64,000 nt of DNA, taken from positions 1 through 64,000 of the forward strand of contig CANFMT010000013.1 in assembly GCA_947448415.1 (NCBI GenBank). The letters run 5' to 3'. Below, piece after piece: positions 46,956-51,126 of the stretch (its first letter is position 1; the number at the start of each line of letters is the position of its first letter). The notes beneath the pieces were generated by a model, which saw only the letters and a list, made by a program, of their open reading frames with translations, made no database searches and was not told the origin of the DNA. The stretch comes from Burkholderiaceae bacterium. GTDB taxonomy: Bacteria; Pseudomonadota; Gammaproteobacteria; Burkholderiales; Burkholderiaceae. The translations under genes were made by a program, and so were the position numbers.

Positions 46956-48149
46956 TTATTGGAAGCGCTGCTTTCTATTTTTGCTAGCAAGCCAAACTAA
47001 GGCTATGGCAGTCACTATCACTGGGGTCAATGACCCAAAATTCAGGATAGTCCATCCTTGAGAAGTGACCAGCGCGCCAGAGCCAAACGAAGTGAAGGCC
47101 ATGGTGCCAAAGACAAAAAAGTTAATAGCTGCTTGCGCTTTATCACGCTCATTGGGTTTGTAAGCAGTCATTGCTAAGGAGGTGGCGCCAGTAAATAAAA
47201 AATTCCAACCAACGCCAAGCAAAAAGAGTGCGATAAAGAATTGATGGAGGTCAGTTCCCGATAGGGCAATGGCGATACAAATAAAGTTCAGAATCACTCC
47301 GGTCCCCATTACCCTTAAGGTGCCAAAGCGCTGAATCAATGAGCCCGTAAAAAATCCAGGCGCAAACATGCCAATCACATGCCATTCGAGGACTAGTGCC
47401 GTATCTGAAAATGGCAGGCCGCAGATTTGCATGGCTAAAGGGGTTGCCGCCATCAGAAGGTTCATTACTCCGTATCCCAATGCTGCCCCAATGATGGCCA
47501 CCATAAATACAGGCTGACGCAGGATGACGCTTAAGGGGCGCCCATCGGAGAGTAAGTGTGGGGTTTTGAATTCTTCGGGGAAGTGGATGCATTGCATTAC
47601 CAAAATCCCAATACAGCCCGCAATAGAGAGGGTGATGTAAGCCCCCAGAAATGCAGTATCAAATAAATCTCGAGTCCAAGAGGCTAAGTTAGGCCCAATC
47701 ACTGCCCCCAGAATGCCGCCAGCCAATACCCATGAGACCGCTTTATCTCTCTGACTTTGTACTGTGAGCTCTGCTGCTGCAAAGCGATATAACTGACCAT
47801 TGGCGCTGTAGTAACCAGCAATAAAGGTGCCGATTACTAACAGCCAGAAGTTTTTGCTAAACGCTGCATAGGCGCAGAGAAGGGCTGAGAGTATCGCCAC
47901 CAATAATCCTAATTGGAAGGATATCTTTCGCCCAAAGTGGTTTTGGGACTTAGCAACAATAGAGGTTGAAAAAGCGCCCCCAACAACATAGCCCATTACG
48001 GGAAGGGTGGCCATCCAGCTATGAGGCGCCAGACTAAGCCCCACCAAACCATTGATTGCAATGAAGGTGACGTTATTCGTCAGGAATAGGCCTTGGCAAA
48101 CGATCAGTAACACCAGGTTTTTATTGAGTAGGGGGTGTCTGCTGGTCAT
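46956..48149 (-). CDS. Major facilitator superfamily transporter
   Basis: A 397-residue protein with 12 hydrophobic helices and the loop-2/3 signature in KSQNHFGRKISFQLG. No ligand motif allows substrate assignment; the overall character is that of YfcJ/YebQ-like multidrug or sugar exporters. It converges with the DUF6352-like gene, 18 bases apart, and diverges from icd, sharing a 237-base intergenic region. Confidence 0.85.
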   Translation of the reverse strand: MTSRHPLLNKNLVLLIVCQGLFLTNNVTFIAINGLVGLSLAPHSWMATLPVMGYVVGGAFSTSIVAKSQNHFGRKISFQLGLLVAILSALLCAYAAFSKNFWLLVIGTFIAGYYSANGQLYRFAAAELTVQSQRDKAVSWVLAGGILGAVIGPNLASWTRDLFDTAFLGAYITLSIAGCIGILVMQCIHFPEEFKTPHLLSDGRPLSVILRQPVFMVAIIGAALGYGVMNLLMAATPLAMQICGLPFSDTALVLEWHVIGMFAPGFFTGSLIQRFGTLRVMGTGVILNFICIAIALSGTDLHQFFIALFLLGVGWNFLFTGATSLAMTAYKPNERDKAQAAINFFVFGTMAFTSFGSGALVTSQGWTILNFGSLTPVIVTAIALVWLASKNRKQRFQ

Positions 48150-48276
48150 GGTTTGCAGTTTACGGTGAATTTACTGTTTCGGGTGTCTTGGTGGAATCCC
48201 TTAAATTGCGAGTTTATATGCCATTTTGAGGTGCAAAGCGGCATTTTTACCAGGCCCGATGATTTAAAATAGAGGA

Positions 48277-48386
48277 CTCGCCTCATAGACAAAGTACCCG
48301 CTAAAAGCGGCTGACTAAATGAGGAGCATGAGAGTGGCAGGGTAATAACCTGACTCTATAAACTTATCAATATTGAGGAAACGTTA
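48277..48386 (+). promoter_or_regulatory. Structured 5' leader of icd
   Basis: Three pairings are visible: CCTCAT 48281-48286 with ATGAGG 48319-48324 enclosing CCGCT-AAA-AGCGG (48298-48310), then AGAGT..CAGG / CCTG-ACTCT (48331-48357). A TAAAAT -10 candidate at 48265-48270 gives a leader of about 110 bases. I recall a published candidate cis-regulatory RNA, icd-II, upstream of such genes, but cannot confirm the match. Confidence 0.55.
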
Positions 48387-50621
48387 ATGGCTTCAGAGAA
48401 ATCAAAGATTATCTACACGCTGACAGATGAAGCGCCGCTTTTGGCGACTTGTGCATTTCTGCCGATTATTCGTACTTTTACTGCACCTGCTGGCGTAGAG
48501 ATTGTGACGAGCGACATTTCTGTTGCTGCTCGTATCTTGGCTGAGTTTTCTGATTGTCTGACTCCTGAGCAACAAGTTCCAGATAATTTGGGCGCTCTCG
48601 GTAAGATGACTTTATTGCCTGATACCAACATTATTAAGTTGCCAAACATTAGTGCGTCTGTTCCCCAATTATTGGCAGCCATCAAAGAATTGCAATTAAA
48701 GGGTTATAAGATCCCTAATTTCCCGGATGACCCAAAGACTGACGAAGAGAAGGCAATTCGTACTCGTTACTCCAAGTGCTTGGGTAGCTCAGTAAATCCA
48801 GTATTGCGTGAAGGTAACTCTGACCGTCGCGCTCCTCCTGCAGTAAAACGCTATGCTCGTAAAAATCCACACTCCATGGGTGAGTGGAGCCAAGCTTCCC
48901 GTACCCACGTATCCCATATGCATGGTGGTGACTTCTACTCTAGCGAGAAGTCAATGACGATGACTAAGGCGTGTGATGTCAAGATGGACCTAGTAACGAA
49001 GAGCGGCAAGACCATTGTCCTCAAACCAAAAGTCTCTTTACTGGCTGGCGAAATTATCGACAGCATGAACATGAGCAAAAAAGCACTTTGCGAGTTCTAT
49101 GAAAAAGAAATCGAAGATGCTTACAAGACAGGCATGATGTTGTCCTTGCACGTAAAGGCAACCATGATGAAGGTTTCTCACCCAATCGTGTTTGGTCACG
49201 CAGTGAAGATCTTCTACAAAGACGCTTTTGAAAAGCATGCCAAGTTATTTGAAGAATTGGGTGTAAATGCCAACAACGGTATGAGCAGCCTCTATGACAA
49301 GATCAAAACTTTGCCAGAATCTAAGCGCGAAGAAATCATTCAAGATTTACATGCTTGTCACGAGCATCGCCCAGCTTTGGCGATGGTTGACTCTGCCAAA
49401 GGCATTACCAACTTGCACTCTCCAAGTGATGTGATTGTGGATGCTTCTATGCCTGCCATGATTCGTGTTGGCGGCAAGATGTGGGGCGCGGATGGTCGTT
49501 TACACGACACCAAAGCCGTTATCCCAGAAAGTACATTTGCCCGCATCTATCAAGAAATGATCAATTTCTGTAAGACACATGGTAACTTTGATCCAACAAC
49601 GATGGGTACCGTACCTAACGTTGGTTTGATGGCTCAACAAGCTGAAGAGTACGGCTCACACGACAAGACTTTTGAAATCCCTGAGGCTGGTGTAGCGCGC
49701 GTTGTTGCAGATGACGGCACAGTGTTGCTTGAGCAAAATGTGGAAGAGGGCGATATCTGGCGTATGTGCCAAGTTAAAGATGCGCCGATTCGCGACTGGG
49801 TCAAGTTGGCTGTAAATCGTGCTCGTCTTTCCAATACTCCAGCAGTATTCTGGCTTGATGAATATCGCCCACATGAAGCTGAGTTGATCAAGAAGGTAAA
49901 AACCTATTTGAAAGATTACGATCTCGAAGGTGTGGATGTCCAAATCATGTCTCAGACACGTGCAATGCGTTACACGCTTGAGCGCGTTATTCGCGGTAAA
50001 GACACTATCTCTGTAACCGGCAACATCTTACGTGATTACCTCACTGACTTGTTCCCAATTATGGAATTAGGTACCAGCGCCAAGATGTTGTCTATTGTGC
50101 CTTTGATGGCTGGCGGCGGCCTCTTTGAAACTGGTGCTGGTGGTTCAGCTCCTAAGCATGTTCAACAGTTAGTTGAAGAAAACCATTTGCGCTGGGATTC
50201 ATTAGGTGAGTTCTTGGCTTTAGCAGTATCTCTAGAGGATATTGGTGATAAGACTGGTAATCCTAAAGTGAAGATCCTGGCTCGCACATTGGATGAGGCT
50301 ACTGGAAAGTTGCTGGATAACAATAAGTCACCTTCTCCACGCACTGGTGAGCTTGATAACCGCGGAAGTCAGTTCTACTTGGCCATGTATTGGGCTGAGG
50401 CATTAGCTGCCCAGACCGAAGACAAAGAGTTGCAAGCTTACTTTGCACCTTTGGCTAAATCTTTGCTGGAAAATGAAGTCAAGATTGCTGACGAATTAAA
50501 AGCGGTTCAAGGTAAACCTGCAGATATCGGCGGTTACTACGTTGCTGATCCAGAAAAGTGCAAAGCAGTAATGCGTCCAAGCACAACTTTCAACGCAGCT
50601 TTGAAAGCTGCAAGAGCTTAA
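48387..50621 (+). CDS. icd: Monomeric NADP-dependent isocitrate dehydrogenase
   Basis: A 744-residue enzyme, the usual monomeric IDH length, beginning [52 protein letters not shown] and [27 protein letters not shown] are diagnostic. It oxidises isocitrate to 2-oxoglutarate with NADP+ in the TCA cycle and is an important NADPH source. The leader upstream suggests mRNA-level control. GAGGAAACGTTA ahead of the ATG gives a good ribosome binding site. A strong terminator follows. Confidence 0.97.
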
Positions 50622-50706: not shown

Positions 50707-51126
50707 TTGTTTTCGATCATACCAAAACCTAAAGATCTTGTTGAATTGAGTTATCTGAGCGAAGCTGTCTCAGAGATGTCTTTTTTAGGTTTAATGCGGC
50801 TATTAGAGTCAGCTCGTGCTTTTAATCAAAAGAATGGCATTACTGGCATCCTCCTATATGACAACCAACAGTTTGGCCAAATTATTGAGGGTGAGCGTGC
50901 CAGCATTATGAAGGTCTGGAAACGAATTCAGGAAGACAAACGTCATCATCGTATTGAGTTGCTAGAAATTCGTGAGATTACAGAGCGTGCATTTCCGGAC
51001 TGGCTATTGCGTTTTTATGGTGGGGAGACGTTAACCAAAGAGTATCCAGCTTTAGCCGAAATGGTTGGGGGAATGGATAAGCATAGTCATGCACTGATGA
51101 ATAAAATGCGTGAGACCGAAAGATAA
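50707..51126 (+). CDS. BLUF-domain blue-light photoreceptor
   Basis: A 139-residue single-domain BLUF protein. Tyr16, Asn40, Gln58 and Trp99 keep exactly the spacing of AppA Tyr21, Asn45, Gln63 and Trp104, the flavin-binding photocycle residues; LVELSYLS and GITGILLYDNQQFGQIIEGE confirm it. BLUF proteins bind FAD and shift their hydrogen bonds on blue light, signalling to partners. There is no output domain. The start must be TTG at 50707 since a stop lies at 50695 and the first ATG would delete strand beta 1. It stands 10 bases after the icd terminator. Confidence 0.9.
   Translation: MFSIIPKPKDLVELSYLSEAVSEMSFLGLMRLLESARAFNQKNGITGILLYDNQQFGQIIEGERASIMKVWKRIQEDKRHHRIELLEIREITERAFPDWLLRFYGGETLTKEYPALAEMVGGMDKHSHALMNKMRETER

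What the first reader, a model, noticed from the sequence alone, without database searches (positions are those of the whole stretch)
48265..48386. Structured leader of icd, possibly the icd-II RNA
Two nested helices and a third stem are readable directly. A candidate cis-regulatory RNA for icd genes has been described under the name icd-II as I recall; whether this matches needs a covariance search. If real, control of NADPH-producing IDH by RNA would be of interest.
Basis: partly seen in the sequence, partly recalled or inferred. Interest (0 to 1): 0.6.

Follow-up and report, generated by a model that had tools for sequence, protein, structure and literature searches.

The report
Known icd-II leader RNA of icd
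The stretch in front of this freshwater bacterium's isocitrate dehydrogenase gene is a copy of an already described leader RNA of unknown trigger (icd-II), and comparison of about 120 relatives suggests that one of its three published stems is really the gene's promoter and not part of the RNA.

Summary
Window 48256-48378 matches Rfam RF04189 (icd-II) over the full model, E = 8.9e-18; the score of 92.3 bits is just under the curated cut-off of 99. It lies 8 nt before the start codon of a monomeric NADP isocitrate dehydrogenase. A covariance model built only from relatives' RNA cores, without the window and without promoter or Shine-Dalgarno sequence, finds 48276-48362 (82.8 bits, E = 3.6e-19). 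121 of 186 genomes of the genus (Polynucleobacter) have it, none of 24 other sampled genera. The family was published in 2021 as a riboswitch candidate without ligand, so it is not new. What I add concerns that paper's open point. The left shoulder of stem P1 does not covary with the right. It sits in a block, ATGATTTAAAAT, nearly invariant in 120 leaders and persisting in relatives whose leader is different or very short. I therefore read it as the -10 promoter element: transcription starts about 48275-48277, at the foot of P2, and the RNA is P2 with its inner hairpin plus P3. Trigger and output are untested.

The parts
48187..48208 (+). Conserved upstream DNA block CTTGGTGGAATCCCTTAAATTG (consensus CTTGGTGGATTCCCTTAAATTG), possible activator site of icd
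   Evidence: Column identity 0.72 against 0.36-0.40 for flanks and 0.52 for fourfold sites; kept in relatives without the MFS neighbour. Function inferred.
48224..48249 (+). Phased T3 / A3 / T-rich tracts about 10 bp apart upstream of the -10
   Evidence: T3 and A3 near-invariant in 120 leaders. UP-element-like role inferred.
48256..48268 (+). Left shoulder of Rfam/Brewer stem P1 (48256-48261 and 48265-48268); probably promoter DNA, not RNA
   Evidence: RF04189 alignment; no covariation with the right shoulder.
48265..48270 (+). Probable -10 hexamer TAAAAT inside the block ATGATTTAAAAT (48259-48270)
   Evidence: Block 117-120 of 120 identical per column; TTAAAAT-like block persists in relatives with other leaders. 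TSS about 48275-48277 inferred from spacing.
48276..48362 (+). icd-II RNA core (P2, inner hairpin, P3)
   Evidence: Core-only covariance model R1, window not in training: 82.8 bits, E 3.6e-19.
48277..48332 (+). P2: CUCG/UGAG outside, CCUCAU/AUGAGG inside, GGA-containing internal loop on the 3' side
   Evidence: Pair counts.
48298..48310 (+). Inner hairpin CCGC-UAAAA-GCGG; GCYAAAAGCG is the most conserved RNA segment across both leader classes
   Evidence: Alignments; G-C to A-U changes in the stem.
48333..48355 (+). P3 hairpin AGU-GG-CAGG / CCUG-ACU
   Evidence: Pair counts; kept through a register change in other leader classes.
48363..48376 (+). A/U-rich linker and right shoulder of the proposed P1, running into the Shine-Dalgarno sequence
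   Evidence: RF04189 alignment; pairing with the left shoulder not supported.
48375..48379 (+). Shine-Dalgarno sequence GAGGA
   Evidence: Sequence; ATG 8 nt after the model end in nearly all relatives.
48387..50621 (+). icd, monomeric NADP-dependent isocitrate dehydrogenase
   Evidence: TIGR00178, 1348 bits against a cut-off of 950.

Best explanation
It is an orthologue of the icd-II leader RNA (shown by sequence and position). A conserved promoter with -10 TAAAAT at 48265-48270 starts transcription at about 48275-48277, right at the foot of P2 (inferred). The nascent 5' UTR folds into two adjoining hairpin domains, P2 with an inner UAAAA-loop hairpin, and P3 (supported by covariation), followed by an A/U-rich linker and a Shine-Dalgarno sequence (GAGGA) that no conserved helix covers. 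No intrinsic terminator follows, so if it controls icd it most likely does so after transcription: the 5' end is locked in a helix, which should slow 5'-end-dependent mRNA decay, and the folded domain can set access to the ribosome site. A metabolite or protein that changes the P2/P3 fold is possible but unproven. The published P1 stem that would mask the ribosome site is probably not part of the RNA.
For: Identity: RF04189 full length, E 8.9e-18; core-only model E 3.6e-19; 87% identity to an above-cut-off member; same gene and spacing in nearly every relative. Core structure: 0 of 500 shuffles reach the observed percent paired, two-sided cells or covariation score. Promoter reading: ATGATTTAAAAT identical in 117-120 of 120 per column, against 0.52 identity at fourfold sites of icd; P1 pairs no better than shuffles (212 of 500 reach the number of two-sided pairs), 18 G-A, 43 T-T and 72 C-A or G-A mismatches not compensated; computed P1 pair probability 0.03; block kept in relatives whose leader is short or of unrelated sequence; no RNA-like covariation further upstream. 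No terminator on the + strand.
Against: No transcription start is mapped. One relative (G032) lacks the 6 nt between TAAAAT and CUCG, which would put the start inside P2. There is no recognisable -35. The right shoulder UAUYGA is itself well conserved, which P1 would explain. Two of 120 leaders show a two-sided change at pair 2-130. Stabilisation of the mRNA is inference only; in the computed folds the Shine-Dalgarno bases are unpaired only 30% of the time on average, by varying partners. The core's conserved loop (GCYAAAAGCG) hints at a specific binder rather than a mere clamp.
Confidence: 0.6

Rival explanations
1. Translational riboswitch as drawn by Brewer et al. 2021: a three-stem junction whose P1 includes the ribosome-binding site; a ligand such as citrate, 2-oxoglutarate or a relative closes or opens P1 and so turns icd translation off or on.
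For: Published model. Both shoulders are conserved and 86.6% of P1 cells form standard pairs.
Against: P1 changes are not compensated, the left shoulder persists where the RNA is gone, computed P1 probability 0.03. The core differs so much between sister groups that a model of one class scores the other at only 13.7-13.9 bits, unusual for an aptamer.
Confidence: 0.2
2. Pure 5' clamp: the hairpins only protect or pace the mRNA and sense nothing; the rapid turnover of leader sequence between relatives reflects this loose constraint.
For: Relatives have different leaders behind the same promoter, several with a 5'-proximal hairpin (G153, G068, G039, G131).
Against: Within icd-II, GCYAAAAGCG and GGA are nearly invariant, more than a clamp needs; several relatives (G023, G122) have no 5' hairpin.
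Confidence: 0.25
3. Protein-responsive leader (CsrA-type, since GGA recurs in the P2 loop and the Shine-Dalgarno sequence).
For: GGA in an internal loop and in the SD.
Against: No CsrA match in this genome (85% complete), while the control search finds it in E. coli, B. subtilis and T. maritima.
Confidence: 0.08
4. Leader-peptide (uORF) attenuation: an 8-codon ORF AUG AGG AGC AUG AGA GUG GCA GGG UAA lies in the window copy (48319-48345).
For: Present in the window sequence.
Against: Length and presence vary widely (0 to 25 codons; 30 of 120 have none) and a 1-nt indel shifts the frame in many relatives.
Confidence: 0.02

Closest known systems
icd-II ncRNA motif, RF04189 (Brewer et al. 2021, PMC8632094)
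   Same: Orthologous position before monomeric icd in Polynucleobacter, full-length model match, same P2/P3 core.
   Different: Score 7 bits under the gathering cut-off; a shorter, slightly different P2 loop; my reading takes P1 out of the RNA.
icd motif (earlier candidate, other proteobacterial classes; described in PMC8632094)
   Same: Also before icd genes and a candidate without ligand.
   Different: Different conserved sequence and stems according to the paper; not matched here (one search lists only icd-II as significant).
5'-terminal mRNA-stabilising hairpins such as that of E. coli ompA (own knowledge)
   Same: Helix at the very 5' end (if the inferred start is right).
   Different: icd-II has conserved loops and a second domain; no stability data.

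Membership tests
icd-II (RF04189) | Significant covariance-model match over the whole model | tested here: met
   Positions 1-133, 92.3 bits, E 8.9e-18.
icd-II (RF04189) | Rfam gathering score of 99 bits (curators' annotation cut-off, not a biological feature) | tested here: not met
   92.3 bits. Homology rests instead on synteny, 87% identity to a 121.5-bit member and an independent core model.
icd-II (RF04189) | Located directly before an NADP-dependent icd gene, mostly in Polynucleobacter | tested here: met
   TIGR00178 gene 8 nt downstream; nearest named IDH 97% identical, P. yangtzensis.
icd-II (RF04189) | Helices P2 and P3 with covariation | tested here: met
icd-II (RF04189) | P1 closing a three-stem junction and including the RBS | tested here: inconclusive
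   Complementarity present, covariation absent, left shoulder looks like a -10 element.
Riboswitch (any class) | Specific ligand binding that changes expression | not testable with these tools
   No ligand known in the paper found.
icd motif (first kind) | Match to its covariance model | tested here: inconclusive
   No such match at E up to 10, but I did not check that this motif has a model in Rfam 15.

The most novel reading that the evidence does not exclude
icd-II is not a three-stem-junction riboswitch: its P1 left shoulder is the icd promoter, the transcript begins at the foot of P2, and different 5'-UTR modules have been swapped in behind one conserved promoter during the evolution of the genus, so ligand searches and constructs built on P1 should be redesigned.
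Probability: 0.6. Interest if true: 0.4.

Novelty: new member of a known kind. Interest (0 to 1): 0.3.

Why it matters
icd-II is an unsolved riboswitch candidate at a key branch of carbon and NADPH metabolism in common freshwater bacteria. The published report left open where the RNA begins. About 120 orthologues now argue that the RNA starts at P2, which changes which construct to test with ligands and removes the proposed way of masking the ribosome site. A default Rfam scan misses this copy and 43 other matching genomes of the genus.

Tried and rejected
Rfam at gathering threshold: no hit, resolved by an E-value search. Promoter/terminator scan: no sigma-70 pair, one terminator-like site on the minus strand only. 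RNAalifold on the mixed alignment gives only 8 pairs because two leader classes align badly in the loops; replaced by named-structure and class-specific counts. Raw mutual information per class was dominated by shared ancestry and was not used. Anti-Shine-Dalgarno pairing of the P2 5' strand with GAGG: mean probability 0.03 across relatives, so not a conserved switch, although 0.23 in the window copy. A hairpin upstream of the -10 (CCCC...GGGG in one class): no more paired than shuffles. uORF: not conserved. CsrA: not found. Genome-wide search for the -10 context or the upstream block: no clear regulon.

Full report
What is there. The window holds, on the + strand, a 744-codon ORF at 48387-50621 that is monomeric NADP-dependent isocitrate dehydrogenase (TIGR00178, 1348 bits), preceded by a 237-nt gap to a divergent MFS gene (46956-48149). 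Its closest named relative is Polynucleobacter yangtzensis (97% protein identity). Energy of the quoted 122 nt alone is not convincing (z -1.22), and that of the larger region not at all (z 0.46), so comparative evidence was sought.

Rfam. At gathering thresholds the window has no match. With an E-value threshold on 401 bases, RF04189 icd-II matches 48256-48378 end to end with 92.3 bits, E 8.9e-18, gathering score 99. The family was described by Brewer et al. 2021 (PMC8632094): 25 examples, mostly Polynucleobacter, a proposed three-stem junction with the ribosome-binding site in P1, ligand unknown. The authors note that the left shoulder of P1 resembles a -10 promoter region and that the limits of the motif are therefore uncertain. 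No later experimental work was found in the library.

Relatives. In 186 genomes of the genus, 121 have a match at E up to 1, 77 above the cut-off. Apart from a few weak or truncated ones, all lie 8 nt (model end to ATG) before the same gene. 159 of the 186 have the monomeric enzyme. In 399 genomes of the family, matches occur only in this genus, 1 of 25 genera. The window leader is 87% identical to that of G115, which scores 121.5 bits. A covariance model of the RNA core alone, trained on 38 relatives without the window, with neither the putative promoter nor the Shine-Dalgarno region, hits the window once, 48276-48362, 82.8 bits, E 3.6e-19. The match is thus not carried by promoter or ribosome-site conservation.

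Structure. On 100 leaders, P2a, the inner hairpin and P3 together have more standard pairs, more two-sided cells and a higher covariation score than all 500 column shuffles. Within one class, two-sided changes occur in 7 of 24 pairs (7 of 500 shuffles reach this). Shuffles ignore relatedness, so these are supportive, not formal, values. P3 is kept through a change of register: CAGG/CCUG in one group, GGCUGGG/CCUAGCC or GGUUCGGU/ACCGAGCC in others (read from the alignment). The best conserved parts of the RNA are GCYAAAAGCG and GGA.

P1. The ten P1 pairs show 86.6% standard pairs against 86.2% in shuffles, and the number of pairs with a two-sided change is reached by 212 of 500 shuffles. Changes go uncompensated: G-A at 6-126 in 18 leaders, T-T at 10-121 in 43, C-A or G-A at 1-131 in 72. 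At the two variable inner pairs the association is not significant (p 0.16 and 0.23). The computed P1 probability is 0.03 on average.

Promoter reading. ATGATTTAAAAT (48259-48270) is identical in 117-120 of 120 leaders at every column, while fourfold sites of icd have a mean identity of 0.52. T3 and A3 tracts and a block CTTGGTGGATTCCCTTAAATTG lie upstream at fixed distance; the block survives where the MFS neighbour is not found next door. In relatives without a detectable icd-II RNA (G153, G040, G068, G039, G022, G131, G130, G013, G107, G112 and others) a TTAAAAT-like block persists some 34-115 nt before the start codon, with unrelated or very short leaders. The region upstream of the block shows no RNA-like covariation. 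TAAAAT matches five of six bases of the -10 consensus (sequence), and a start 5-7 nt after it falls at 48275-48277, the foot of P2. I infer that P1's left shoulder is promoter DNA. Against this: no mapped start, no visible -35, one relative (G032) lacking the spacer, and conservation of the right shoulder.

Mechanism. Shown: a conserved two-domain RNA fold before icd. Inferred: start at P2, 5' end in a helix, no conserved helix over the Shine-Dalgarno sequence, no terminator on the + strand, so action after transcription, on stability or translation. Not shown: any trigger. CsrA was not found in this assembly (85% complete) and a leader peptide is not conserved. The pronounced divergence between leader classes (a model of one scores the other at 13.7-13.9 bits) and the replacement of the whole leader in sister species argue for caution before calling it a metabolite aptamer.

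Verdict. A correct identification of a known, unsolved candidate; the new content is a better-supported boundary for the RNA.

Noticed in passing
window 48187-48208: CTTGGTGGAATCCCTTAAATTG, a strongly conserved DNA block upstream of icd, kept when the neighbouring MFS gene is not there; no other exact copy in the genome. Possible site of an unknown regulator of icd.
   Followed up: partly
L221, L224-L227, L228-L230 (relatives G066, G120, G012, G107, G112, G023, G069, G122): More distant members of the genus carry another block, AATAGGTAAGGATARTCAAAG, a fixed distance before TTAAAAT, instead of the window's upstream elements: the icd promoter seems to have been rewired.
   Followed up: no
genus-wide: 27 of 186 genomes have no monomeric isocitrate dehydrogenase match; whether they use the dimeric enzyme was not checked.
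   Followed up: no
window 50707-51126: A BLUF blue-light sensor domain protein (PF04940, E 3.8e-27) lies directly downstream of icd, followed by a molybdopterin oxidoreductase and a lipocalin.
   Followed up: no
L168 (G032) 501-644: The 6 nt between TTTAAAAT and CUCG are missing, the one leader that fits the promoter reading badly.
   Followed up: no
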